Shown here: piece by piece, positions 559 through 63,800 of the stretch
Layout: each line of letters starts with the position of its first letter
Position numbering within the stretch: position 1 is the stretch's first letter
The notes under the pieces: model-generated
What the model was told of the DNA's origin: nothing
The model's input: the letters and a program-made list of their open reading frames with translations, nothing else
The model's database searches: none
Assembly: GCA_949987565.1 (NCBI GenBank)
Contig: OX465104.1
Span: 12,396,300-12,460,299, forward strand
DNA length: 64,000 nt
Origin: Luidia sarsii
Lineage: Eukaryota; Echinodermata; Asteroidea; Paxillosida; Luidiidae
Reading direction: 5' to 3'
Translations under genes and position numbers: made by a program

Positions 559-3510
559 CTACGTGATGGTTCAATTCGGGAAGGTCAGGAAGTAATGAAA
601 TGTTATCTCAAATTGAACAATTGGCCAAGAAAACTTTGACTGGAACTTGAACCCGAGACCTCTGAATTAATGTACCAGTGCTCTCCCAACTGAGCTATCC
701 AGCCCTTAGATGGTGGCCTTCCCTAATAGTCAACTAGTCTTTGCCAGTTTAGGGGCGCCAGTCAGAAGCAATTCAACCATTAACTTCCGTATATCTTCAA
801 AGATCACACCCCCACTTTCATTCCGATGCAAAAAAGTAAATCTTGTAAACCTGGCTACAGCAGCTCGGGGATCACACAGAGTGGATGCAGTTTTTCAATT
901 CAAGTCAAACAAACAAAGGAAATTTGGAGATATATATCTATTGATGCATGTAGCAAAGAAATTTTCACTGGATCAGGACTTGAACCTGGGACCTCTGGCT
1001 TAATGTACCAGCACTCTAACAACCATAGCTATCCAGCCCTTAGGTGGCAGCACTTCCCAAATAGTCAACTACCTTTACTAGAATGGGTGCGACAGTCAGA
1101 CGTATTGAATCATTGACTGCCGTTTATCGCCAGGGAACATGCTCACATTTTTATTCAGTTGCGAACAACAGTTGGTTGTAAACCCAGCTACAGCAGATCA
1201 GGGATCACAAAGTGGATAGAGATTTAAAAGTTAGTGAAAATAGCAAAGATTTAATTTTTTACTGGACCAGGAATTTGCCTACCTTCTCCTGCACAATGGA
1301 GACATAGGGGAGGATGAGCAAGGCATCCTTCCGGTTGCATAGCAACTGCCTCATGATGAGGATCTCAGCCACCAGCGTCTTGCCTCCACTGGTTGGCAGG
1401 GAATAGATGAGATTGCGTCCTTCCCTGATGGCTGGGAGTGTAAGACAAGCATGCTGCCAGTCTGTGAAAGGAGAGAGGGAGAGGGAGAGGGAGAGGGAGA
1501 GGGAGAGGGAGAGGGAGAGGGAGAGGGAGAGGGAGAGGGAGAGGGAGAGGGAGAGGGAGAGGGAGAGGGAGAGGGAGAGGGAGAGGGAGAGGGAGAGGGA
1601 GAGGGAGAGGGAAAGGGAGACATGATCAACCACAATTCAGACATTTTAAAGGGCCAGATGTTTCAATCAGAACCTTGAATTTTTGTATTACCATTTTACC
1701 ACATTTTATGGAAAATTAAAACCACATAGTCCTGCTTTACCATAGAGCTTGTCAATGCCTCTGTTGTCTCTCAGCAGCTCGGCCACTCGGCTGGGAAGGC
1801 CGTAGAATGGACCCACATCGTTGTCCGAAGCACCCTCTGCCTCCTCCAGTGCCTTGGTCAGTGCCTCTTGGACTCTGGCCTGGCGCAGCTCGGCCAGCCG
1901 CGCAGACGTCGGGGTCGCCTCCCTGGCATTGGCCTGCAGCCTCTGCCGGAGCCTCCCAGCGGCCGAACGGACGGCGGGGGTGACCGACTGAACGGTCGCT
2001 TTGCCCGGCGCTTTGTCATCCGGATTCACAGAGCCCACAGGGCCAGCCTCGCCTGGACGAAGCCTGGGATCGGAAGCCGAACTCGCCTCCTCAAGAAAGA
2101 ATCCCGAGTGCCTGCTCGGCTCGCCGCTGCTCTGGCCCTCGATGCTGCTGAACCACTTCTCCGGCCGGGGGGTCTCTGAGCTCACTGACCGCTGGGGCAA
2201 GACCTCCCTATCGTCTCTTGTCATCGACCTCTCGGCTGTCATCCCGTGGCCGTTTGGGAGGAGGCTAGTTGTTGTCATGCTGCACTTCCGTCTGCCAACG
2301 GCAGAGGCAGAGGAGGTGGAAGAGGAGGAGGTCGAGGGGATTGGGCCAGCTGGCTTCACTCTCTCCGCCTCTTGGGACTCGGCGATCAACTGATCCATGT
2401 CCAACTTGTCGTAGAAGGAGTCCTCGTCATCCCACTCCACTGGCACCTCCTTCGCCTGGTGTTTCGAGGGCTCCGGGGCCAGACTTGTTGCACGAGGCCT
2501 GGCCGACACGATGAGGCTCTGGCTCTGCTGGTAGCGTGAGGTCTGAGGCGTCGGAGGGAGGGGACTGCCACCGGGTGAGTCTTCGTTGCACTCCTCCTCC
2601 GTCTGAAATCATGCAATGATATCATTTTGAGTCAGGGGAGTGACACTACAACCATGCAGAACTCTTCTTATTCCTCCATGCTACAACAGTCAGCAGGCAT
2701 AGCATTGTTAGGGTATCAGAACTTAAGTTACAACATCTTTAGCCCAAGAGCTTTTTGTCTGTTCAAAAGAATTATTTTAAAGAAAACTGTGTGCCTGAAA
2801 GGTATCTGTTTTCAATAGGCTAACATTGGCAAGTCTAAATAAATCAATAGGCCCCTGGGCTATAGTAGTCAGATTTACAGCAACTGGTTGTGTGCATCTG
2901 AATGAAAATGGGGGTGTGAATCCTCTAGAGAGATTATGTTAAGCCACAGGTCCAGAACTCCTGGTCATGTCAAATTTTGCTCTACCATTTGAAAAAAGAG
3001 ATCTCTAGTGCCTCAGTTTTGACTTTTGTAAGTAATCGGTTATTTTACTCTTTCATTTGATATGCTGTGTGAATAGTCTTACTCCTACTAAGTGAAGTAC
3101 TCACACTCATAGTAGTACTAGTACTAGTACTACACTACAGTACAGTACTTACTACTACTACTACTAGTTCTATTACTAGGTAAATGTGATTCAAGAAAAA
3201 CAATTAAAATGGGTACAAAATGCAAAGGTTGAAACTTGTTTCTGTGACTAGATTCAATCTAGATGACCTAGGTCATTGACCACTCTATACTCAGACTCAA
3301 GAGATGTGACTTGGACTCAAGACTGTCTCATCTACACTACACATACAATCTACACCCTGACAAAGTTACACTTGCCTGAGGTTGGTCCCATTCACTCGCT
3401 CCATCCTTGTGTTTCTTTGTGGTTGTTTCAGGCCCCTGGATAAGGCTTCTTCGTTTCCTGGTGGAGACTCTACGCTGTAGTCCTTTCACAGAGTGAATTT
3501 CATCGGCCAT
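358..3510 (-). CDS. HELQ: HELQ helicase, 5' part of gene (partial, 4 exons)
   Basis: HELQ is a superfamily-2 3'-to-5' DNA helicase of the POLQ-like group that acts in the nucleus in repair of stalled or cross-linked replication forks (family knowledge). The coding exons in transcript order are 3376-3510, 1741-2602, 1283-1461 and 358-558. Phases join exactly: 45 codons, then 287 codons plus one base, then two bases plus 59 codons, then 67 codons. Visible features are a basic N-terminus, a long low-complexity acidic/serine-rich region, the block [14 protein letters not shown] just before the helicase core, Walker [14 protein letters not shown], motif Ia region [10 protein letters not shown], the conserved VEEYAGSKG block, and the start of motif II (VVVDE) at the last donor. 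The rest of the helicase core and the C-terminal domains lie left of the window. It is divergent from SNX14. The family assignment is very secure; the extent of the first exon is less so. Confidence 0.93.
612..900 (-). mobile_element. tRNA-like SINE-type repeat (family S1), reverse copy
   Basis: Read on the minus strand, the copy has a roughly 150-bp non-tRNA segment (around TGATCTTTGAAGATATACGG) followed by a tRNA-like segment with box A (GGATAGCTCAGTTGG) and box B (GGTTCAAGTTCC), then CAGTCAAAGTTTTCTTGGCC. It lies in a HELQ intron. The same arrangement recurs at least eight times in this window. Confidence 0.7.
953..1225 (-). mobile_element. tRNA-like SINE-type repeat (family S1), reverse copy
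   Basis: Second S1 copy in the same HELQ intron and orientation, more diverged. The box B region (AGGTTCAAGTCC on the minus strand), the box A region and the upstream segment with GTTTACAACCAACTGTTGTT are recognisable. Confidence 0.6.
1283..1461 (-). CDS. HELQ: HELQ coding exon 3 (Walker A)
   Basis: The exon encodes [20 protein letters not shown] followed by the ATP-binding loop PTSGGKT and the motif Ia region ending in QEK. The acceptor CTTTCACAG lies about 10 bases from a 150-bp CT-rich microsatellite (1471-1620 on the plus strand), which acts as an unusually long polypyrimidine tract. Confidence 0.92.
1471..1620. repeat. (GGGAGA)n microsatellite, about 25 units
   Basis: A nearly perfect hexanucleotide array, purine-only on the plus strand. 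It lies in a HELQ intron about 10 bp before the exon 3 acceptor and is pyrimidine-only in the HELQ transcript. One interruption (GGGAAA) is near the right end. The homopurine/homopyrimidine tract is capable of triplex formation. Confidence 0.95.
1741..2602 (-). CDS. HELQ: HELQ coding exon 2 (disordered N-terminal region)
   Basis: This 862-bp exon is bounded by a TTTCAG acceptor and a GTAAAG donor. It encodes an acidic, Ser/Pro-rich region with few aromatic residues, then an Arg/Ala-rich helix, and ends with [16 protein letters not shown] and GIDKLY, which matches the segment just before the HELQ helicase core. The sequence is open throughout and shows no internal start that would be preferred. 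Confidence 0.88.
3098..3180. repeat. ACT/AGT trinucleotide-rich tract
   Basis: Degenerate (ACT)n and (AGT)n runs with local inverted symmetry in HELQ intron 1. The rest of that intron (2603-3375) shows no other feature that I can support. Confidence 0.6.
3376..3510 (-). CDS. HELQ: HELQ coding exon 1 (start codon, GC-AG donor)
   Basis: The ATG at 3510 opens [19 protein letters not shown], which resembles the short basic start of vertebrate HELQ (RRRVSLPKR). The exon ends in CAG, followed on the minus strand by GCAAGT. Only this GC donor leaves phase 0, which the next exon needs; the GT two bases further on would leave phase 1 and break the frame. Confidence 0.75.
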
Positions 3511-41485: not shown

Positions 41486-41643
41486 CTAAGCTTCGTCGGG
41501 GGTTGGGAGCTTGCTGATGGTTTCCTTGAACTCCTTCTGGATCTTCTTGAGGAGGTCTTGGCTGGCGGGCTGGAGCAACTCGATGGCCGTCATGGCCAGC
41601 GCTTTGGCCTGCAGCAGGGTGGGTGCCTGTGCCTCGGGCGACC
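41486..41643 (-). CDS. PM20D2: PM20D2 terminal exon
   Basis: Enters with two bases that complete Gly, then [20 protein letters not shown] and [11 protein letters not shown], ending LPTPDEA and TAG at 41486. Matches the human end [20 protein letters not shown]. The acceptor (CCCCTGAAG) is somewhat weak. Confidence 0.9.
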
Positions 41644-44600
41644 CTTCAGGGGACGGCGATGGTGGAGAGGTTCGGTGAGGAGGGGTGGGGGGAAGGAGAA
41701 AACATTCTCAAAGATGCCGGAAGAAATGCAGATGGATACAGAACACTGATGTACGTGATAAAGTAAAAGAAAACTGACTGTGATTGTTTTTTGTTTGGGG
41801 GGGGGCTGAATCTCAGGACAGGCAGTAGGGTCTGCAAATCCACGTGTGAATTCGTCCATGAAGTATTCCAGACAGAAAAAGCATTCATGCCTTTGATAAC
41901 ATCAACCAAATAAAGGAAAAACTGACTGGGAACATTTGAGCAATTTTGTAATCTGGCAAAGACAATTTGACTGGAGCAGAAATTGAACCTGAGATCGCTA
42001 GTACATTAGACCAGATGTGACCAGTCTACCTAGTAAGGCCACATGCTCTCTGCTCTCTCTATATCCTAATTGTATTCAGTCTTCAGGATTAATCTGCTGG
42101 TGTCACCTGGGCTCAATTTCATAGAGCCGCTTAAGTGTGAGAATCTGCTAAGCAGGTAAAGTCTTCCTTACGTAAGCAGGATTACAAATCGCACAGCGGT
42201 GTGATGTCATTTTTTTTTATTTTTTTTTTTACTTACTTTTACTTAACTTAAAACAATAGTTTTGGGTTGGCCAGGTGGTCCTATGCATCATGATTTTGGG
42301 GTTAAGCATATTTTAGGGCTTAAGCAGCTCTATGAACTTAGCCGCTGGTCCCTTTACAGGTTTTCAAACAAATTCCTTTTCATCAATAAGCATTCACTTT
42401 GCTTTGCAGTGTATTGCAATGAGCAGTCAGGCCATGCCATGCCTCTTGCGACTGCCATGCATTACGCTGTCCTAAATTTATGCAGCTAGTCCTACAGCCA
42501 TTCAATTAAGTTGAATAGTCTTTTGTTGCTGCCCTGCATCCTCAAAGTCCTACCATTGGAAAGCCTTGGATTGTTCCACCCTGCCTTGTTGAGTGCGGGC
42601 TGGTTACTTGGGTTGGACTCCATGTGCTTCAGGACTCCCAAGAATGAGCAGCAAACCGTGCTCTCACACTCTCAAAAGTAGACATTGCTTCGTGCAAATA
42701 ATTCTCCTGTCCACCCTGTCTCCCTGTCCACTAATTGGCACAAGTCGTGGGACGCTGCATGGTAAGCTCATTACTCAGGTCTATTTCTTTCTACACAGTG
42801 AATTTTATCTACTGCTTGCATATACTGTATTTTGGGAACATTTAGATGTATATAGAGATGTCAAGCATCTGTGTCCTTGCAAATACAATAATTCATTGTA
42901 AATTCGTGCTATGATGGAAAAATGAACACCCAGTACCTCTGTATACTAGTACCTGATGTTTAGTGCTATCCATTTTGGAAACTCTCAGACATTTACTGGT
43001 GGTAGTGTGCTAGTACATGTACAATGTAGTGAGGCATGGGTGCAAGTCTTATCCTAGTCAAATTGTCTTTGCTATTTCTTTAAAAAAAAATCAATCACCA
43101 AGTCAGTTTTGCTATCCTTATTTTTTTTCCATAGATCTCAAAGGCTGACGTCAATGCAAAAATAGCATTTATGACACTGACAATGTGACATATAAACAAT
43201 AACACAAACAAAACAATGTTTGCCCTATTCTTTGATTTGAGTGTCTGTTCTCAAACTCTCAAAATAAAAATAAATCAATAGAATTGAAATGCACCCACCA
43301 CTATTAACCTGAGTGCTTGAATGAATAAACATGTATTAGTAGATGTGCCTTCATGCAATGTTAGGCATGCTGGTGTGAAACAGCTTCCAAAACAGCGGGC
43401 GTCCACAGATTTGACAAGGCCTCATACAGAGAATGGAAAATGACGGTTTGTCCATTATGAGTTTGGATGGATTTGGCCAGGCCAAGTATGACCAACGGCA
43501 ACTTAGAAATGATGGCTTCTCCAAAGTGAGAAGTGGATCTTACAAGTGGATGGATTTTGCAAAAGCCATGTACGGCTAACGGTAACGGGTTTGTCCGTCG
43601 TGCTTTGAGTTGGACCATATGTCGGTCGAGGTCGTGCACAAAAAACGCCCGGCCCCTCGGCTTACACACCTGCCAGTGCCGTGAACGACCTCGTGTGGAT
43701 GGCCTCGCCACGGTGGCCCACCGCAAACTTGGGCTGGATGCTGGGCACCGCGTACGACACGTTGCCCATGTCTGTGGAGCCCCCCAGCCGGTGGGCCTCG
43801 TCCCGGCTCGGCTCGAGGCCAAGGGCCCGCGCGTGCGCCTCGTACGAGCCAGCCATCCCCTCATTGCTCACCAGATTGGCATAGGAACAGATGTCTTTAT
43901 CACACTCCACCTATTAGACACATAAACAAGTGGCAAGAGTTCTTCTAGTTGTGGCGCGACGATCTCTGTTTTTTGGGGAGATGTTTTGATTTTTAGAGTT
44001 CGGACTGGAGAGGCTGACTTTATTAGCGCGGCTACATGCAGAAGTCTGGGTACCAGATCATTCCATTAAAAAAAATCAACCTTCCCCCAACCATTGTCCT
44101 AGTCAACTGTTCAGCAGCCGATTTCAAGAAAAGTTGCGTAAGTTACGCAACTTACAAATGTTGCACAAGTCTTGCGCCACAAGGACTCTTTTCAGCAATA
44201 TCTAGTAAAGGCAGCAAGTTTCTTGAAATCGGCAGCTGGTGCATGTGAATACCTGCAGTGGCAGTGAACACATGCGTGTGGATGTTGGCATGGTCGGTGA
44301 CGCTGAACATGGGGTGGATACCGGGCACCACGTAGGACAGATTGCCGAAGTCGGTGGAGCCGACGCTCGTGTCGTGGGGCGCCCATTCATAGCCCAGCTC
44401 AAGGGCGTGCTTCTCGAACACCTCGACCAGACCAGCGTTGGTCTGGACATTGGCAAAGGACACCGAGGTGCTAGTGTCCACCTACACCAAAGGAACACAC
44501 AGTGTTATTATCCCCTCCCGTCACCTTCCTCATCATCAACTAGATCGGTCAAGATAATAGCAAAAGGACATCCAGGTGTCCACCAACACTATAAGGAATG

Positions 44601-47600
44601 AAAAACTTTCATGAACCTACTCACTACTCATGCATGCACGTCTTGACCCACGTTGGTCAAGATATTACCAAGTAGTACCTCAGACCTAGTGTCCTCCTCT
44701 CTCCTCAACCTACACCTGTGCTCATCAAGTCATTCGCAAAGGATAGGATTCACTTTCACCATGAGCGAATTGTACACCAGTGAATGCAACCCGAGGTGCA
44801 ATGTTGCAAAAAGTGACATAAAATCTTCTCCCGGGGCAGGCATCTTTTTGCTGTTTTTACCTGCCAAGACCGTGGACTGGGCAAGGCTGTCCGGAGTGGT
44901 CGGCGTGACCGCGTACATGGGGCTGATGCTGGGCACAGCACGCGAGGCATCGCCACAGTCAGAGGCCACCACAGAGTGGCCGCCGGGCGGGCCATTGGCC
45001 AACTCCAGGCCAAGCTCGGCCGCCTGCTTCTCGTACAGGCCGGCCAGCAGGGCATTGGTCAGGAGTTTGGAATGGGAGATGCCGCACTCCAAGCTCACCT
45101 TTTTTTGTTTTGTGTTTTTGGTCGGCACGTTCAATTAAGTTCAAATGACGGGCAATATGGGGAAGGAGGAAAATTGACAAAAAATCAAATTAATTCGGGA
45201 TTTGACAGTCTCCTAACGACGGGCAGACCACACACTACCCATTGAATTACTGGCTCTTTTTAGAGCCACACTCCATCTCTAAAAGAGATGACTTATATGG
45301 TGTCACCGCAACCTTTCCATTTTGTGTGTCCACCATGCAATCCTTTATATCTTATCTAGGGTTTGACAAGGCTTGAATTTCTGCCATTTTACGGAGTGAG
45401 GCCACTTTGAGGGCACACAGACCTCTTAGTGGGGCACGGAACAGCTTGTCCAAATTGCTCACCTGTAATACTGTAATAAGCCAACAGCAGCTGGCACAGA
45501 TTGCTATCTCAAACGGAAATACAGGATGTCCCCCCAAAAAGAAAATCTTGGTCGCTACTGGCAACACAAACCTTGCATCCGGTTGCCACGGCAGCACCCT
45601 CAGCGCAGGCTTGCATCTTCTCCTTCAGGATGGCCAGGTCCCCCTCGTCCAGGGCCCGGGCACAGTAGGTCAACTCTGCCTCCTCTGGGATGACGTTGGG
45701 GGCCGCTCCACCGTTAGTGAAAATGCCTGAGTATAAAAACGGCTGACTGAATGAGAAAAATACCTTCCTACATTTGAGAGCTGGCCTGATCAGGTCAGAT
45801 CAGGTCAGGATGGGTTGGGTCAGGTCAGGTTGGGTTGGGTCAGGTCAGGTTGGGTCAGGTCAGGTCAGGTCAGGTCAGGTCAGGTCAAGTCAGGTCAGAT
45901 CTGATCAAAATTGCCATTTGACTAACGAATCAAAAAGATAAATAGAATTGGGAATGAAAGATTGGCGGAAAAGAAGTGAAAGGTATGATTCTCCCTTCCA
46001 CCAAAAAAACAATCATTCCAGAACTTCTGGACCTACCGTGAATTCTGCTGGAAGGCTTGACCTGTTGTCGCATGTTGGAGATGGACTGGTAGCACATGAC
46101 GGCGGCGTCCAGGGCATTGACCCCATCCCAGGGTGCCGCAGAGGCGTGCGCCGCCTTGCCCTTGAACTTGAAGACCAGCCTGGGGACGAATCGGGCAAAA
46201 GAACAGAACTCCCACTGGTCACCGGACCGACCCCTTTTTTACTGATCGATTCCTTAGCTAGTCCTCTGGTCAGCTTAAGTACGGGTTTGCGGGCACAATG
46301 TGCGGATTGAAGCTTGCAAGAAGAGGTGTGGTTTTGACAAGAACCAATGAGAGCAAACTCGACTGTATGCTCAGTTGTTTGTCCAATTGCCTGCTGAAAA
46401 AAAGACGTCTGCACTAGAAAGCAGACGTCGTGGTTTCAAATACTGCCCGAGCTGCCTGAATTTTTTCAGCAGGCAAATTGGCAAAGCACTGAGTATACAG
46501 TCATTAGTTACACGTTGAGTAGGGCTAACACTTCTTTAAGGAATGTTGGTTTTAAGAAGAAAAAAGAAGAAAAGATTCACATTGTCATGGAGAGAGCGAT
46601 GGGGCGGGGCACGTTGTAGCGGTAGGGGTGAGCCATCATGGCTGCTGCGATGCCCACGAAGGCATTGGCCTTGATCAGTCTCTTCTTGCCACCACCTCCT
46701 TCCTCGGCCGGCGTTCCCATCACCGTCACCTGATGTCCAGAAAGCAAGAAAAAATTAATGCCAGCTACCGATTAAACAAGTTGGACTGACTCCCTTGGAG
46801 CATAACTGCCAACCTTTCTTAAAGGAAAAAATGAGGAATTACACAGCAAACATTTCTAAGCCAAAAAACAGAAGCTGTATTGTCAAGAGCTTGTAAATAG
46901 TGATAGATTTTTACCAAAAATGAGGAATGATTCCTGCAAAATAGGAATGGTTGGCAGCTATGTTGGAGGATAACCCGTTGTAAGTTGATACATCGTATGG
47001 TTTCTGCGCATCGCTCATCATCTTGCGATTGATCGTAAGTTAAGAGGGGTTTGGTGAAATCCACCCTAGGACTCGGACTGACTGACTGGCTGTTACTGGC
47101 CACTTCCTCACCTTTCCGTACTTATTCCCACTGGCCTCCAAGGCTGCTTTGATGCCAATACCAGCCGCCGCCCCGCACTCGGCTATCAGGTTGTGGCCGC
47201 AGGCATGGTCAATCTCCGGCAGGGCATCGTACTCGCAGATGACGCAGATGTTGGGGCCGGCGTTGTCCGAGCCAAACGTTGCCCTGAATTTTTCAAACGC
47301 AAAGTGGCAAACGCCACACAGAAATGACGTTTAAGCTGTGTTTCCCTTTGAACTTGTTTAGTCAAGTGGTGGACATGATGAACGGCCCAGTGGATAATTC
47401 AAATGGCAAGCGGTATACACACAACCTTCATGCAGCCAACACCCAAAACAGTACATACACGATGGTACTTCACACATTGAGCAATGCAGTGTCCTGATGA
47501 ACCTATCGAGACAGTGCCAGATTGCGATCATCGTATTGTATACTGCATCGATAATACTAGAGAGAACTCCTAGCAGGACCTTTCTCAAGGTCCTGCTAGG

Positions 47601-48008
47601 ATCGAAACGTCAGGCCCTCTTACATTTGAGATTTATGTATTGCAGGTCATTTTAATCAGTGATCAGTTTGCAACAGTTTTTTGTATTTAATAACTATTGT
47701 GAACTGCCGCCTTGTATACGTACAATTTTGGCTGCATGACGGTCACGTATATACTCACTTCCATTTGAAACCCCTGCAGTCTCTCACCTGAAAGCCGTCT
47801 CCAGGACAAAGTGGCGCTCCACGTTGAAGCCTTGCTTCTCCAGAAAGTCGGTCAGGACCTCGTGGGCGTGGTGCTCGTTGAAGTTGAGCTCCGGGTGGGA
47901 CCAGATATCCTGGCTGAGGATGTTCAGCTCGCCGGCCAGGCTGTCTATCTTGGCCCGGGCCGCCTTCATGAAGTCGACCATGGTCTGGGAGTTCTGGGCG
48001 TCCGCCAT
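41486..48008 (-). CDS. PM20D2: PM20D2 M20-family dipeptidase, complete, with a triplicated exon
   Basis: PM20D2 is a cytosolic metallopeptidase that hydrolyses dipeptides of beta-alanine or GABA with basic amino acids, a metabolite-repair role in animals that make carnosine (family knowledge). Exons in transcript order: 47788-48008, 47112-47283, 46581-46729, 46037-46179, 45572-45726, one of three alternatives (44861-45098, 44253-44481 or 43670-43910), and 41486-41643. With the middle alternative this gives 408 residues; human has about 436. Metal-site and family motifs are [58 protein letters not shown] and GSTDFGN. All junctions are GT-AG and in phase. The ATG at 48008 has a purine at -3 and G at +4; an upstream in-frame ATG at 48047 and a 5' UTR intron (CTGCAG just upstream) are possible. 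Confidence 0.95.
43670..43910 (-). CDS. PM20D2: PM20D2 alternative exon 6, copy A
   Basis: Eighty codons plus one base, with acceptor TCTAATAG and donor GTGTGT. Starts [18 protein letters not shown], contains [18 protein letters not shown] and [11 protein letters not shown], so the family residues are kept, but the 35-45 residue loop ([11 protein letters not shown]) differs from copy B in length and sequence. Confidence 0.9.
44112..44238. repeat. Inverted repeat beside alternative exon B
   Basis: CAGCAGCCGATTTCAAGAAA (44112-44131) pairs with TTTCTTGAAATCGGCAGCTG (44219-44238) with one mismatch. Inside is a perfect 11-bp palindrome, AAGTTGCGTAA and TTACGCAACTT (44131-44153). In the transcript the stem starts about 14 bases after the exon B donor. 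Confidence 0.85.
44253..44481 (-). CDS. PM20D2: PM20D2 alternative exon 6, copy B (most canonical)
   Basis: Seventy-six codons plus one base, with acceptor GGTGTAG and donor GTATTC. Contains [17 protein letters not shown], nearly identical to the human GSTDFGNVSFVVPGIHP, and [12 protein letters not shown], aligned with NHTEQYTEAAG, which holds the final metal-ligand histidine. This is the likely ancestral exon. Confidence 0.92.
44861..45098 (-). CDS. PM20D2: PM20D2 alternative exon 6, copy C (degenerate)
   Basis: Open for 79 codons plus one base. Starts [20 protein letters not shown], keeps [11 protein letters not shown] and ends VLAG at a GTAAAA donor. Compared with copies A and B it has ASDCGDAS in place of GSTDFGN and lacks the histidine before the end (DSLAQST where the others have IHT). 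Upstream of the acceptor AAAAAAAG the coding strand is A-rich with no pyrimidine tract. It could be a noncatalytic alternative exon or a decaying duplicate. Confidence 0.7.
45214..45358. mobile_element. Foldback element, family M2
   Basis: Arm with TTTTTAGAGCCACACTCCAT, AAAAGAGATG and GGTGTCACCGCAACC; the left arm is short. In the PM20D2 intron between exon 5 and alternative exon C. Confidence 0.65.
45572..45726 (-). CDS. PM20D2: PM20D2 exon 5 (last constitutive exon before the switch)
   Basis: Encodes [20 protein letters not shown] through [10 protein letters not shown] and ends in phase 0 at AAG with donor GTTTGT. The next exon must therefore enter in phase 0, as all three candidates do. 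Confidence 0.94.
45785..45902. repeat. (TCAGG)n pentanucleotide repeat
   Basis: Mostly CAGGT units with GGGTT variants, in PM20D2 intron 4. Confidence 0.9.
46037..46179 (-). CDS. PM20D2: PM20D2 exon 4 (start of lid domain)
   Basis: Encodes [20 protein letters not shown] and [20 protein letters not shown], matching the dimerisation/lid domain entry GKASHSASYPWEGLNALDA of the human protein. Confidence 0.95.
46375..46530 (+). mobile_element. tRNA-derived repeat (family S2)
   Basis: AAGACGTCTGCACTAGAAAG, GTGGTTTCAAATACTGCCCG and AGCTGCCTGAA, then GGCAAAGCACTGAGTATACA. Related to 7225-7395. In PM20D2 intron 3. Confidence 0.6.
46581..46729 (-). CDS. PM20D2: PM20D2 exon 3 (catalytic Glu pair)
   Basis: Encodes [20 protein letters not shown] and [16 protein letters not shown]. 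The EE pair and the MAHP histidine match the M20 catalytic base and metal ligand positions. The donor GTGAAT leaves two bases. Confidence 0.95.
47112..47283 (-). CDS. PM20D2: PM20D2 exon 2 (first metal ligands)
   Basis: Acceptor AAATTCAG, donor GTGAGG. Contains [20 protein letters not shown]; the Cys and His of HACGHN are the first metal-site residues in the M20D group. Confidence 0.95.
47567..47685. mobile_element. Foldback element, family M1, one arm longer
   Basis: TAGCAGGACCTTTCTC joins AAGGTCCTGCTAGGATCGAA, followed by the long right arm ending ATCAGTTTGCAACAG. In PM20D2 intron 1. Confidence 0.7.
47788..48008 (-). CDS. PM20D2: PM20D2 exon 1
   Basis: Encodes [20 protein letters not shown], then [18 protein letters not shown] and ends in ETAF with two bases of the next Arg codon. 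The block [18 protein letters not shown] matches WSQPELAYEEHHAHRVLT of the human protein. Confidence 0.92.
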
Positions 48009-54800: not shown

Positions 54801-57800
54801 GTACCTGACCGTCGTTATGGAGAAACTCATGCACTGGGCCACTTTTCAGTGCCCATGACTGCCACATGGGGAGTTTTAAAATTCAGAGCATGCTAAACTG
54901 TGAAATTGTGAAATCTATAATTTGCCAGGTGCCTTGTTGAAGGGCATAAGGGCAAGGCTGTGTTCACACATTATGTCATGATGAAATAAAACTGTTTGTA
55001 AAAGGGTGTAAAACGGACCAGAAGGAATTTGTTCCCAGCAAAAGGGTATAAAGTTATTTTGGCGTCTGAATGCACTTATGCCCTTCTGCTGGGCACCCAA
55101 CAAATTGACACAGTAACATGTGCACAGGAGAGTCAAAACTGGTACAAGGATGTCTGTGGCTTTTGTCATGCTACATATTGTTTCGTGGTTGACTGAAAAC
55201 ACTAACAGTCTTTGTTTAAAACTTGGACAATTTAGTGGTGGCCAGATTCGGAGGACCCGGTGCATAGCAACGATACCACCGGCCCTCCAAATTTGGAGGT
55301 CCCGGCGCAAAGTGGTAAAAGTGTCACAACAAAAATATTGAGAGCCCAATTTTCCAATTCCAGCAGGACCTTTCTCTAAGGTATTTTCTCATTATGCATT
55401 AATTGATTGGAAATTGTTTGAACTGATAATTTTGGTTGGGTAGGTAATTCAATGTCGAGGTCACTGAACTATTTGATACTCGATTTGTTTGATACACTGT
55501 AATTGATTTTTGATATGATTTATTTGGTTGTTCTCCCATTCCAAGGCGGGAGTGAGGAAATCTAAGAAACCGGCATTTTGGTGGGTGGACGACCATGGCA
55601 ACGAAATCAAATGGAGTTTTACTGACCTGCGGAATAGATCGATGACGTAAGTACACTAAAGTGAAACTTTAACCAAATGCAGCCCCAACACTAGCTAATC
55701 GAACCTTTGTTTTTTTGAGAATATGTGTTGCTGATTCCTATTCCTTCATAGAAATAACAATTTTATGGAGCAGCTTAAGTGTAACATTCTGTTAAGCATG
55801 AAAAGTCTTCCTTGTGTAAGCAGGATTACAGACCAAATTGTTGAGTGAGGTTACAGTTGCTTTGGATTTGTTTTCCACCCTACTTTTCTTTGTATGAAAC
55901 AAAAGTGAAATTTGGTTGGCAATGCAAGCTGATATCTTACGAATTATGGAATTTTGTAGTTTTGTAAATTGGCCCAGAATGCTTGCTACATTGCAGACTT
56001 GTCTTCGAGTCCCAAAATGTAGAGTGATTCTAAGTCGCGAGTCATCCAGGTTGACACAATGGTTGAGTCCGAGTCACAAGTCACGATACTAAGGTTAAGT
56101 CTTGAGTCCAAGTCTATATTATTTTAATACTAACTATGTATGTATATATTGGAAACACATGTCCCGATTTTTGACAGTTTTTTCCTCAAATCATCCTCAT
56201 CAAAGTTGTGTTTGCATTGGACAAGTCGTAAAAAGTCAAATCTGAATCACTACATGTACAGGTCCGAGTTTGAGTCTGAGTTTTTTGTTATTGTGATGGG
56301 TTCGAGCTGGAGCTGTGGAAAATAAGACTCAAGTCAGACTGGAGTCCAAGTCTGACTTTTGAGTTGGATGGTACAATACGTTAGTTATACACTGTATTGA
56401 ATGGTGGCTGTTTGTTTTTATCTCTCTGGTTATGTTAGGGTTGCGAACATACTGAGCCAAGACTGCAGCCTGGTCAGGGACGAATCGGTGATGGTCATAT
56501 TACCCAGGGTGCCAGAGTGGTGGCTTCTCAACATCGCCTGTCTCCGCACTGGTGAGATCCAAGAAGTAGCCTTTTTCACAAGGCCTTCCTCACATCATGT
56601 TATATCTGTGATGCAGAGCAGTAACTGCCGCTATACATTATTCAGCCACACGACCTCGACCAGCTCGGTGGTCAATCAAGTGGTTAAGACGTCTGCACGA
56701 GAAAGCAGGAGTCGCAGGTTTGAAACCCGCCAGAGCTTCCAGAAATTAGTTCATCAGGCATTAGGGCATTCAGTGCTTGTTACGTCAAGCTGGGCAAACT
56801 CTCATTGAATTACATTCTCCTCAATGTAAACATCATGTTATGCCTTCCCTGCTGTCTCAAAATTGGTCTGTGTTTCCAATTTCTCTATGAATCACAAGAT
56901 TGAGTGATCAGTGGCCAATTTCACAGATTTAATTTTAAGCCTGAAAGAAAAGTCCTGTGACCAAAATGTCTCGCTTATTAATTCTGTCAATATTTATTTA
57001 CTTTTTTCATTCTTGTCAAGAACCAAAGTGGAAAGTTTGCAGTGTTACCATATAATCTCTGAGTTGGAGTGTGGTTCTGAAAATAGCTGGTAACACAATG
57101 TATCGGGCACTGTGATGGGCAGAGTATGCACTGCCTGAAATGGTGAATTACTGGCTATTTTCAGAGCCACACTCCATCTCAAAAGAGATTAATTACATGG
57201 TGTCACCATGAAAACCCTCAAATCTGATCTATAGTCAATGAGCAGAATTTGTGTATAACTGTAAACCCCTCTTCATAAGTCATGATTTGTGTTACATTGT
57301 GAAGTGCCAAACATATACATATATTAAGCTGATTATTGTGTGATTTAATAAATGTCAAAGAAAATTCTTAATCTGTGAATGTACCAGCAGTCTTACTTCT
57401 AGATATATCAAGGCCTTAGATGGTGGCCTTCCCTTTCTTACTAATGTGTTTTGTTTTGTTTTTTGTTTGAAGGAACCATTTTAATTCCAGGAACAACCCA
57501 GCTTACGGCAAGAGATATAAAGTATCGTCTCCAAGCCTCCAAAAGTCATTGTATCATCACAGATGAACACACCGCTCCACTAGTAGATGAGGTACATGTA
57601 CATCTTACGGACGATTTCCTCTCATCAGGGATTCAAATCCCAACCTTGCTTTTTTTTTCAAGAAGGCAATGGGGAAAAAGCATCATAATGTATAGTCAGT
57701 CGGTAGCCGGCGCCAGACTGAAATGCTATTGAGGCTGCCATCAAAGAAAACTACAGGTGGAAGTAAAGAGCACCACCATGCCCAATGCTCAATGCTTGAA

Positions 57801-60800: not shown

Positions 60801-63800
60801 TTTCTCCTCAGCATATAGTTGTGTTTGCATTGGACTTGATTACTATCATTGAGTCTCAGGTCAAGCAAATTAAATCCAAGTCCAAGGCCAAGTCAGTTGG
60901 GACTGAGTCTGAGTCATTTGGTATTGTGACTCAAGTGTGACTCAAGATTCGAGTCAGACTTGAGTGTGGGTCGGAATCATGAAAGCCTGGCTACTCTTTC
61001 TGAAAGGAAGACTCTCTTATTACCTCATGAAGGAGGATGACACTCAGATTCATTATTCATGTTTTTTTGTGGTGGTGGTCTTTTTTTTGAACAGAATCCT
61101 GAAGTCTTAAAATTTAGTGGGCCTGACGTTTCGATCCTAGCAGGACCTTTCTCAAGGGTCCTGCTAGGATCGAAATGTCAGGCCCACTAAATTTTAAGAT
61201 TTACATTTTGGTAATTTTAGTCAGTAAGCAGTTTGCAACATTTTTGTATATCACCTTTAGAATCCTGAAGTGATGGAAGCATGGAGAGCAGGCAGTGGTT
61301 CCAGGATCCATGAAGGTTATGGGCAAACAGAAACAGTTAAGTCCATCGTGAGACCAGAGTGATTTGCTGTAGCACAGTGCAGAAATATTCTCTTACTTTT
61401 TACAAAATATTAGGAGGGCCTGGAGTTTCGGTCCTGGCAGGACCTTTCTCAAAGGCAGCCTTTGAAAGCAGGACCTTTTTTTCAAAGGCAGTCTGCCTCT
61501 GAGAAAGTTCCTGCTATGATGAAAGCATTAGAACCTCCTAATATTTGATACTTTTTTGGTCATTTTAGTCAGTAAGCAGTTTGCAACGTTTTTGCATATT
61601 AACCTCTTTCTTTTGTGTGTGTTATTATTATATTTTTATTTGGGCTAATATTTCATGATCATGGGCAGGGCAGCAAATATTAGCTGGATATCACCATCCT
61701 TGCATTGAAGACTCTGGTTTCAATGCTTGAAAGTAAATACACACTGTATTTCACATATTCTGCCCTTTGAGAAAGATCCTGAGAGAATCAAAACTCTGAA
61801 TTTGATATATTTGACATTTTTGGTGAGTAAAAGCAGTTTTGCACCAGTTTTTTATACGACTTCACTTCACACGAGTGCGAATGTCTTGGATTGAATCCTC
61901 GCAGGTCTTGATCTCGGGAATGTTCCGTTGTCTGAAGCCCAAGCCAGGCTCCATGGGCAAGCCCTCGCCCGGCCACGACCTCTGCATTGTGGACCAGGAC
62001 GGCCGGGAGCTGCCCCAGGGCGAGGAAGGCGACATTGGGATCCGGGTCAAGCCCCACCGCCCCGTGGGCCTCTTCTCCCACTATGTGGTCAGTGGACAGT
62101 GTCTGTGTGTGTGTTTAATGGGGTTTTTTGGCACAAAATGTGACCCATCATCACCACAAAACGAACTTAAAGACTGAATTTTCAGAAAATGAGCTTTTGG
62201 TATTTCTGAAATCTGCAGATCAGAGATTTCCAATTATATAACATTCAGGGTAACATTAATGCTCCAAGCTGATGACAGAGCTTGTGGAAGCAAGAGAGAT
62301 CACACTATTCTATTGAGAAAGATTTGACTTTGACCTTCTGCTCTGGGAAAAGGTGCAATGCAACTTTCAGCTGATTTTGTTGCGACAGGTCACATATATA
62401 GCATCCATATCCATATCCAGGGCATGTACCAGTATCACACTGAAATTAGGAGCCCCTCCCTGGAATGCATCCATTGACATCTGTCCTTGGCTGTCCTAAT
62501 TGACCACGTGGGGCCAATTCCTCTGTTGAGATCATCTCTCCATCTGGTCTTTGAAAGTCCTGGTTTTTCTCATCCAGTCTCTAGGGCTCCAGTCAGTCAC
62601 TCAGATGGTCCATCTATTCTCATATAGCATCCCCCTTCCTAGAAACCACCCCCCCTCCCAAAATAAGCCCCGCCCTCTTCCCATAGCCTCCCATACCAAG
62701 CCGTACCCGTTTTTTGTAACCCCTCAACCTTTTCCCCTTCCCAGCCCCCACCATACCAAGGTGCTCCCCCTTTTCCGTTCCTCCCCCTTTTAACAGTTTG
62801 CAACATTTTTTCGTTCCTTTTTTGAGGGCAAAATTTTAGTTAGTGGCCTAACGTTTCGATAATAGCAGAACCTTCATCAGAGGATAAAATACTCAAACAC
62901 ACAAGTGGACAAATAAGAGCCCTTTTTTCTACAAAAATCCTCACCCTCTGCACATTTGACCTCTGCCTGACCTCCTCCCTGTCCACCGTTCACAGGATGA
63001 CCCGGAGCGGACGGCCAAGGTGTTCCGTGGTGACTTCTACTTGACCGGTGACCGGGCCGTGTACGACGAGGAAGGCTACCTGTGGTTTGTCGGCCGAGCT
63101 GATGACATCATCCTCTCAGCAGGGTCAGAGCAATCCCTACTCCCTCATCATCCCTGTCTGAATTCATTGGCTGTGGCTTTGAATCACACACACACACGTC
63201 TATGGACACTGGTAGTTAGTGCCTTCTAATCACCATAGACTCATGGCTATGGCTTTAAATCACACACAATTCTATGGATGCTGCCAGCCACTGGCTGCAG
63301 CCAATCACCATACACTCATGGCTATGGATTTAAATCACGCACAATTATATGGATGCTGCCAACCACTGGCTGCAGCCAATCACCATACACTCATGGCTAT
63401 GGATTTAAATCACGCATAATTATATGGATGCTGCCAGTCAATGGCTGCAGCCAATCACCATACGCTCATGGTTTTGGCTTCGAATCGCACACAAATTTAT
63501 GGATGCTGCCAGCCACTGGCTGCAGCCAATCACCATACATGATCATGACTATGGATTTAAATCACGCACAATTATATGGATGCTGCCAGCCACTGGCTGC
63601 AGCCAATCACCATACACTCACAGCTATGGATTTAAATCACACACAATCATATGAATGCTCCGCCCTGCTTCTGATGCAGCCATTCACCATAGACCTACGA
63701 CTTTGGCTTTCAATTATACCCTATGGATGCTGCCTGCCAGTGGTTAAGATTTGGTTGTTCTCCCCCCCCCCCCTATTGTCATTGTGCTGGATAGATATCG

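What the first reader, a model, noticed from the sequence alone, without database searches (positions are those of the whole stretch)
43670..45098. Three tandem copies of one PM20D2 exon that can only be used one at a time
Between PM20D2 exon 5 (donor in phase 0) and the last exon (entry needs one carried base) lie three homologous exons: 44861-45098, 44253-44481 and 43670-43910. Each starts with GTG in phase 0, ends with a single G before GT, and has length 3n+1. One copy keeps the frame; two give 3n+2 and three give 3n, so both break it. All three are open. They encode the last part of the metallopeptidase domain, including the GSTDFGN block and the final metal-ligand region, so switching would change the active-site wall and probably substrate choice. 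The frame arithmetic is direct observation; mutually exclusive splicing is inference. I know of no description of this in PM20D2.
Basis: partly seen in the sequence, partly recalled or inferred. Interest (0 to 1): 0.88.

Follow-up and report, generated by a model that had tools for sequence, protein, structure and literature searches.

The report
Starfish PM20D2's three swappable active-site exons
A starfish-like gene for a small dipeptide-cutting enzyme carries three alternative versions of one active-site exon, of which only one at a time keeps the reading frame, and one version lacks a highly conserved active-site histidine, so splicing may choose between an enzyme, a modified enzyme and a probable non-enzyme.

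Summary
The window is starfish-like and encodes PM20D2 (Xaa-Arg / beta-alanyl-lysine dipeptidase) on the minus strand. Coding exon 6 exists in three open, homologous copies (6a, 6b, 6c) of 3n+1 bases. One copy keeps the frame; every two- or three-copy form stops at the fourth codon of the next copy; skipping ends early in the last exon. Support from relatives: five Patiria miniata and four full-length Acanthaster planci annotated isoforms differ only in this exon and hold one copy each (a fifth Acanthaster model has one copy and an unexplained tail). The window copies group with 6a-, 6b- and 6c-type exons of those species; Asterias has 6b and 6c types. The exon carries the position of human Tyr314, the GSTDFGN block and the last conserved histidine. 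Position 314 is Tyr in 6c, mixed in 6b, His in 6a. 6a-type exons lack the last histidine, which 150 of 153 relatives have, while the metal-site motifs of the constitutive exons are kept. Best reading: mutually exclusive splicing swaps an active-site wall, and 6a gives a conserved, probably inactive or altered isoform. Annotated scallop isoforms swap exon 3 instead. No RNA evidence could be examined.

The parts
47788..48008 (-). PM20D2 coding exon 1 (starts ATG)
   Evidence: Pfam match of the spliced protein
47112..47283 (-). exon 2, holds HACGHN metal-site motif
46581..46729 (-). exon 3, holds PAEEGGGG and AHP metal-site motifs
46037..46179 (-). exon 4, dimerisation (lid) domain
45572..45726 (-). 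exon 5, end of dimerisation domain, donor in phase 0
45099..45209 (-). acceptor region of 6a: 109-nt zone without AG, 15-nt pyrimidine run far upstream, A-rich just before the exon (distant branch point inferred)
44861..45098 (-). exon 6a, 238 nt; His at position 314, no GSTD, last conserved His replaced by Ser
   Evidence: counterparts P0009, P0011
44253..44481 (-). exon 6b, 229 nt; Phe at position 314, GSTDFGN, last His present
   Evidence: 6b group
44113..44238 (-). strong RNA hairpin starting 14 nt behind the first base of the 6b donor (function inferred)
   Evidence: z -5.24, 0 of 200 shuffles, for 44100-44270; a 15-nt stretch of each arm occurs nowhere else in the window
43670..43910 (-). 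exon 6c, 241 nt; Tyr at position 314, GSTDMGN, last His present (canonical set)
   Evidence: 6c clade
41486..41643 (-). exon 7, last coding exon with stop TAG; entry needs one carried base

Best explanation
This is a mutually exclusive exon cluster in a starfish PM20D2 gene. One of 6a, 6b or 6c is spliced between exons 5 and 7 (annotated that way in two other starfish; inferred here). Frame enforces the choice: any pair or the triple stops at the fourth codon of the next copy, more than 200 nt before the last junction, and so should be destroyed by nonsense-mediated decay (inferred). Each choice swaps one wall of the active site on an unchanged metal site and lid domain. 6c gives the canonical dipeptidase; 6b gives a dipeptidase with a changed position 314 (human Tyr314) and probably changed substrate preference; 6a gives a folded protein without the last conserved histidine, most likely inactive or with altered metal binding, acting as a partner subunit or binder rather than an ordinary peptidase (inferred).
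For: Frame arithmetic and open frames. Five Patiria and four full-length Acanthaster isoforms identical except this exon, one copy each. Exon tree: 6a 100/100, 6b 100/99, 6c 97/87; a second tree keeps 6a (100/100) and 6c (95/88). 6a against P0009 and P0011: E 9e-22 and 2e-25, against 5e-13 to the 6b-type P0001. Last His in 150 of 153 relatives; the three without are the two 6a-type proteins and P0018, which has also lost other catalytic residues. Human Tyr314 maps into this exon. 6a- and 6b-type Patiria proteins are both predicted with the human PM20D2 fold (pLDDT 91.5 and 92.5; TM 0.91 and 0.92 to 7yh4). GC3 as in the other coding exons.
Against: No RNA reads could be examined; the relatives' isoforms are annotation models. 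Acanthaster X6 (P0012) has a 6b-type copy followed by an unexplained 15-residue tail, so not every annotated form is clean. In the second tree 6b copies are not a separate clade: 6a attaches among them unresolved. The 6a region search found no relative at E <= 10 among 101 candidates. Exon 6 diverges faster than the rest of the starfish gene (65% against 89% for the Patiria-Acanthaster 6a pair), which relaxed constraint could also give. Window 6a is the most diverged 6a copy and its Pfam M20 score is near the cut-off (26.4 against 24.6 bits). No 6a type was seen among the listed Asterias proteins. That the last His binds metal is recalled for the M20 family, not measured here.
Confidence: 0.62

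Rival explanations
1. The three exons are spliced one at a time, as above, but all isoforms are active dipeptidases that differ only in substrate preference; in 6a another residue takes over from the lost histidine.
For: 6a-type proteins keep CGH, EE, AHP, the lid His and the Asp of STD, and have His at position 314 in 3 of 3 sequences; 6b-type exons vary at 314 (Y, F, W, N).
Against: The last His is present in 150 of 153 relatives and the Ser of GSTD, also lost in 6a, in 150 of 153. His at 314 is not special to 6a: 7 of 153 have it, five of them with the last His in place.
Confidence: 0.24
2. Only 6b and 6c matter; 6a is a decaying relic that is rarely or never spliced in this species.
For: 6a has an A-rich acceptor (pyrimidine fraction 0.25 against 0.55-0.80 at the seven other acceptors), the lowest Pfam score and the lowest identity to its counterparts (52-53%). 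No 6a type among the Asterias proteins listed.
Against: 6a is open over 79 codons with GC3 0.82, shares class-specific residues with Patiria and Acanthaster X2 isoforms and groups with them 100/100; its far pyrimidine run with a long AG-free zone is an unusual but usable-looking acceptor.
Confidence: 0.12
3. The copies are an assembly artefact or collapsed tandem genes.
For: Echinoderms do have PM20D2 paralogues, and sea urchin paralogues are mosaics of one another.
Against: The three copies share only 38-43% aa identity, so are not assembly duplicates; a protein-level search of the gene region around them listed no other full copy (listing cut), and the same arrangement is implied by isoforms of two other species.
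Confidence: 0.02

Closest known systems
Mutually exclusive clusters of tandem duplicated exons in animals (human catalogue PMC5740500; human events PMC9741552; passages of both read)
   Same: Tandem homologous exons used one per transcript; lengths not divisible by three are common: 377 (60%) of the human clusters in PMC5740500.
   Different: Three copies here in a metallodipeptidase, with one conserved copy lacking an active-site histidine. The PMC9741552 passages stress ion transporters and mostly conservative substitutions.
Annotated PM20D2-like isoforms X1-X5 of Patiria miniata and X1-X4 and X6 of Acanthaster planci
   Same: Same gene, same exon swapped, same three classes.
   Different: Patiria has three and Acanthaster two 6b-type exons among the listed isoforms; the window has one. 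They are database models; my searches listed no paper on them.
Human PM20D2, cytosolic beta-alanyl-lysine dipeptidase (PDB 7yh4, 8zei, 8xzc, 8zel)
   Same: Same fold and active-site motifs.
   Different: One sequence at this position, with Tyr314; alternative exons of the human gene were not looked for.
Scallop PM20D2-like isoforms (Argopecten P0036 and P0041, Ylistrum P0050)
   Same: Argopecten isoforms X2 and X3 differ in one active-site stretch of 50 residues, with [11 protein letters not shown] or GTPDEECEGGK.
   Different: The stretch matches exon 3, not exon 6 (by inspection): an independent event in the same gene family.
Enzyme genes whose alternative exons change kinetics or substrate use, such as KHK or CYP4F3 (recalled, no call)
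   Same: A homologous alternative exon changes the enzyme.
   Different: The recalled cases keep catalysis; 6a seems to remove a conserved active-site histidine.

Membership tests
PM20D2 / M20 peptidase family | Peptidase_M20 and M20_dimer domains above curated cut-offs | tested here: met
   all three isoforms (6a M20 at 26.4 bits against 24.6)
PM20D2 / M20 peptidase family | CGH, EE and AHP metal-site motifs | tested here: met
   encoded by constitutive exons 2 and 3
PM20D2 / M20 peptidase family (6b and 6c isoforms) | last conserved histidine (metal ligand by recall) | tested here: met
PM20D2 / M20 peptidase family (6a isoform as an active peptidase) | last conserved histidine (metal ligand by recall) | tested here: not met
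   Ser in the window, Thr in P0009 and P0011
PM20D2 / M20 peptidase family | dipeptidase activity on basic dipeptides | not testable with these tools
   needs an assay
Mutually exclusive exon cluster | tandem homologous exons with equal phases | tested here: met
Mutually exclusive exon cluster | double inclusion or skipping breaks the reading frame | tested here: met
   all four multi-copy forms and the skipped form
Mutually exclusive exon cluster | transcripts with exactly one copy | tested here: inconclusive
   9 of 9 listed full-length Patiria and Acanthaster isoforms have one copy; Acanthaster X6 has one copy and an unexplained tail; no RNA data for the window species
Mutually exclusive exon cluster | counterparts of the copies kept in related species | tested here: met
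   all three classes in Patiria and Acanthaster; 6b in A. amurensis and 6c in A. rubens
Mutually exclusive exon cluster by docking RNA structures | docking site pairing with a selector near each copy | tested here: inconclusive
   none of 9 intron pairs stood out against 40 shuffles each, but the method is crude; one search shows one strong local hairpin behind 6b
Mutually exclusive exon cluster by steric block | introns between copies too short to splice | tested here: not met
   introns of 379 and 342 nt

The most novel reading that the evidence does not exclude
Splicing of PM20D2 in starfish is an enzyme/non-enzyme switch: the 6a exon, kept since before the window species, Patiria and Acanthaster split, makes a subunit with an intact lid and the rest of the metal site but no last histidine, which pairs with 6b or 6c subunits to tune or retarget them, or binds a ligand without cutting it. 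Scallops independently put the alternative into the other active-site exon (exon 3), and sea urchins spread exon-6 diversity over mosaic paralogues instead.
Probability: 0.35. Interest if true: 0.78.

Novelty: new variant of a known kind. Interest (0 to 1): 0.64.

Why it matters
Mutually exclusive exons are best known (recalled, and for ion transporters) from channels, receptors and muscle proteins. Here they exchange the active-site wall of a small metabolic hydrolase, and one conserved exon class removes an otherwise near-universal active-site histidine. That gives a clean system for asking how one gene makes several enzyme specificities and perhaps a pseudoenzyme, and why the same family seems to have solved this by exon copies in starfish (exon 6) and scallops (exon 3) but by paralogous genes in a sea urchin. 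The isoforms can be expressed and assayed at once.

Tried and rejected
Further copies in the introns: not established. A DNA alignment of 6b to the 6a-6b intron was matched by 1 of 200 shuffles, but the protein-level test was not significant (21 of 200, in which the 2-kb intron behind 6c was tested only in its first and last 700 bases). So the decayed extra copy upstream of 6b that I first suspected (note) is not shown.

Competing intron structures: over 9 intron pairs, duplex energies were no better than shuffles (40 shuffles per pair, whole-intron duplexes); the best pair, the introns before 6a and after 6b, was matched by 10 of 40.

Steric exclusion: rejected, the introns are 379 and 342 nt. 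Minor-spliceosome incompatibility: not scored; all sites are GT-AG.

Exon classes older than starfish: 6c groups with one urchin type (92/88, not starred). Holding all starfish copies together gave p-AU 0.055, and 6b with 6c together 0.033. This is borderline, on 78 columns, and the groups were named after seeing the first tree, so only suggestive. In that tree the 6b copies do not form a clade of their own.

The region search with 6a found nothing at E <= 10 among 101 candidates, though P0009 and P0011 match it well pairwise. I cannot explain that miss and treat region searches as insensitive; the 6c region search also missed P0007.

Metal ligands from literature: searches gave no PM20D2 structure paper; only passages of PMC11511702 were seen, so the ligand role of the last His is recalled. 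A search for enzyme cases of mutually exclusive exons returned no paper. PMC10570016: abstract and outline only, set aside as not a splicing case. PMC9013439: four terms looked for, no passage found.
Full report
What is there. On the minus strand the window carries a complete PM20D2-like coding region. Coding exons are 48008-47788, 47283-47112, 46729-46581, 46179-46037, 45726-45572, then three alternatives 45098-44861 (6a), 44481-44253 (6b) and 43910-43670 (6c), then 41643-41486 with the stop. All introns are GT-AG. With one copy the protein has 411 (6a), 408 (6b) or 412 (6c) residues. All four multi-copy forms stop at the fourth codon of the next copy, and skipping gives a stop in the last exon. 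Pfam finds M20_dimer and Peptidase_M20 in all three isoforms; the M20 score is 37.3 bits for 6b, 32.3 for 6c and 26.4 for 6a against a cut-off of 24.6.

Is it more than chance? 2.4-3.0% of same-length stretches sampled from the four introns around the cluster are open in frame 0, and about 12-13% of random sequences at exon-like GC. All three copies are open, start and end in the same phases, and have third-position GC of 0.80-0.82, like the other coding exons (0.75-0.92), while those introns have 42-45% GC. Against each other the copies are 38-43% identical in protein, so they are old duplicates, not assembly copies.

Whose gene? The best protein matches are starfish: Patiria miniata, Acanthaster planci and Asterias. 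Outside exon 6 the window protein is 84% identical to Patiria, 82% to Acanthaster and 79-80% to Asterias. A tree of the part before exon 6 places it with Patiria, then Acanthaster (82/90 and 87/97, not starred). The window species itself is not named.

The same exon is swapped in other starfish. The five listed Patiria isoforms share 272 residues before and 54 after, and the four listed full-length Acanthaster isoforms share 271 and 50; what lies between is exon 6, less a first or last residue that the copies happen to share. Each isoform has one copy. Acanthaster isoform X6 (P0012) has a 6b-type copy and then a different 15-residue end, which could be read-through, another exon or a joined copy; I could not tell. 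A tree of 39 exon-6 sequences puts the window copies with these isoforms: 6a with Patiria X2 and Acanthaster X2 (100/100), 6b with Patiria X3-X5, Acanthaster X3-X4 and Asterias amurensis (100/99), 6c with the X1 isoforms of Patiria, Acanthaster and Asterias rubens (97/87). A second tree of 35 sequences under a mixture model keeps 6a (100/100) and 6c (95/88), but leaves the 6b copies unresolved with 6a attached among them; the window 6b still sits with the Asterias 6b copies (94/89). So the types existed before these lineages split, and 6b and 6c before the split from Asterias; 6a may have come from a 6b-like copy. The 6b type numbers three in Patiria, two in Acanthaster and one here. These isoforms are database models; that such models usually rest on transcript alignments is my recollection, and I could not look at reads.

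What the exon does. The human enzyme, named in PDB titles as cytosolic beta-alanyl lysine dipeptidase, has been crystallised as wild type and as Tyr314Phe, the latter also after soaking with a beta-alanyl compound. The one-letter difference between the two chain sequences shows Tyr314 near the start of the segment matching exon 6. At that position 6c-type exons have Tyr (4 of 4), the eight 6b-type exons Tyr (4), Phe (2, the window among them), Trp (1) or Asn (1), and 6a-type exons His (3 of 3). In the 153 relatives held, Tyr is found in 128, Phe in 12 and His in 7, so neither Phe nor His there need mean inactivity. The exon also carries the GSTDFGN block and the last conserved histidine, which I recall as the final metal ligand of M20 peptidases. 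That histidine is present in 150 of 153 relatives. The exceptions are the two 6a-type proteins P0009 and P0011 and the Asterias protein P0018, which has lost other catalytic residues too. Window 6a also lacks it. The 6a-type proteins keep CGH, EE, AHP, the lid His and the Asp of STD, but have also lost the Ser of GSTD.

Does 6a still fold? AlphaFold2 models of Patiria X2 (6a type) and X3 (6b type) have mean pLDDT 91.5 and 92.5. Both match human PM20D2 7yh4 first, with TM 0.91 and 0.92. Within exon 6, confidence is lowest at residues 301-310 (64 for the 6a type, 71 for the 6b type); in the 6a type residues 306-309 are under 50. The models do not show metals.

Rates. Exon 6 diverges faster than the rest in the starfish gene: Patiria-Acanthaster 65% (6a), 74% (6b X3/X3), 61% (6b X5/X4) and 73% (6c) against 88-89% elsewhere. 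In the second Patiria-Acanthaster gene, with no isoforms listed, it is 73 against 78. Of seven further hand-picked pairs, five (three urchin, one mollusc, one acorn worm) differ by at most 6 points, while a Diadema pair (49 against 68) and two S. purpuratus paralogues (38 against 84) also show a fast exon 6. So the alternative exons evolve unusually fast, which fits either diversification or weaker constraint. Class-specific residues kept in 6a argue against simple decay: 40 of 74 aligned residues identical to Patiria X2 (E 9e-22) and 42 of 78 to Acanthaster X2 (E 2e-25), against 28 of 81 to Patiria X3 (E 5e-13).

How the choice may be made. Frame is the clear enforcer: all four multi-copy forms place a stop soon after the first copy, more than 200 nt before the last junction, so decay is expected (inferred). 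In the human catalogue 377 (60%) of clusters have lengths not divisible by three, joined reads were found for 83 (22%) of these, and the authors name further regulation such as RNA-protein interaction and RNA structure (PMC5740500, passages). Here 6a has a peculiar acceptor: a 109-nt AG-free zone, a 15-nt pyrimidine run far upstream and only 0.25 pyrimidines next to the exon, against 14-61 nt zones and 0.55-0.80 at the seven other acceptors. A distant branch point is the natural reading, and such sites are often regulated (recalled). Just behind the 6b donor lies a strong hairpin (z -5.24, 0 of 200 shuffles) that could affect 6b use. I found no convincing docking-selector pairs, but the method was crude.

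A second case. Two Argopecten isoforms are identical except for 50 residues that by inspection match exon 3 of the window gene and carry [11 protein letters not shown] or GTPDEECEGGK; outside, 122 and 226 residues are shared. The alternative form is 76% identical to that of Ylistrum isoform X2 but 48% to its own partner. So scallops seem to swap the other active-site exon. In Strongylocentrotus, with exon limits projected from the window gene, P0019 is 96-98% identical to P0020 over exons 1-4 but resembles P0024 over exons 5-7 (96, 79 and 98%), exon 6 being the most different of those three: there, exon-6 diversity is spread over mosaic paralogues.

Literature. Searches for PM20D2 with alternative splicing, mutually exclusive exons with echinoderms (20 of 31 papers listed), PM20D2 structure, its dipeptidase names and starfish with mutually exclusive splicing (10 of 23 listed) listed no paper whose title or abstract start is about this. 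Beyond the listings I saw passages of PMC5740500, PMC9741552 and PMC11511702, the outline of PMC10570016, and a term search without hits in PMC9013439. The library lacks most subscription journals.

Verdict.

Noticed in passing
P0036, P0041 (Argopecten irradians), P0050 (Ylistrum balloti): Scallop PM20D2-like isoforms differ only in a stretch matching exon 3 (PAEEGGGG or PDEECEGG form), an apparent independent mutually exclusive pair in the other active-site exon.
   Followed up: partly
P0019, P0020, P0024 (Strongylocentrotus purpuratus): Mosaic paralogues: P0019 shares exons 1-4 with P0020 (96-98%) but exons 5 and 7 with P0024 (96 and 98%), exon 6 at 79%; suggests conversion or recombination between copies.
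   Followed up: partly
P0018 (Asterias rubens, 452 aa): PM20D2-like protein that has lost several catalytic residues (H to Q, EE to QD, D to H, last H to Y): a likely stand-alone pseudoenzyme or a poor gene model.
   Followed up: no
P0012 (Acanthaster planci isoform X6, 362 aa): Has a 6b-type copy followed by a 15-residue tail unlike exon 7; read-through, another exon or a joined copy.
   Followed up: no
window 44113-44238, minus strand: Long hairpin with a nested palindrome just behind the 6b donor; a 15-nt stretch of each arm occurs nowhere else in the window.
   Followed up: partly
window 44482-44760, minus strand: The intron between 6a and 6b holds short stretches resembling the start of 6b; not significant at protein level.
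   Followed up: yes
window 56401-56805 and 61827-62174, plus strand: Weak AMP-binding enzyme matches, below Pfam's cut-off (E 4e-4 and 3e-5), perhaps exons of one neighbouring gene.
   Followed up: no
window 1262-1636, minus strand: DEAD/DEAH box helicase match (E 8e-8, above cut-off), perhaps an exon of a gene at the window's left end.
   Followed up: no
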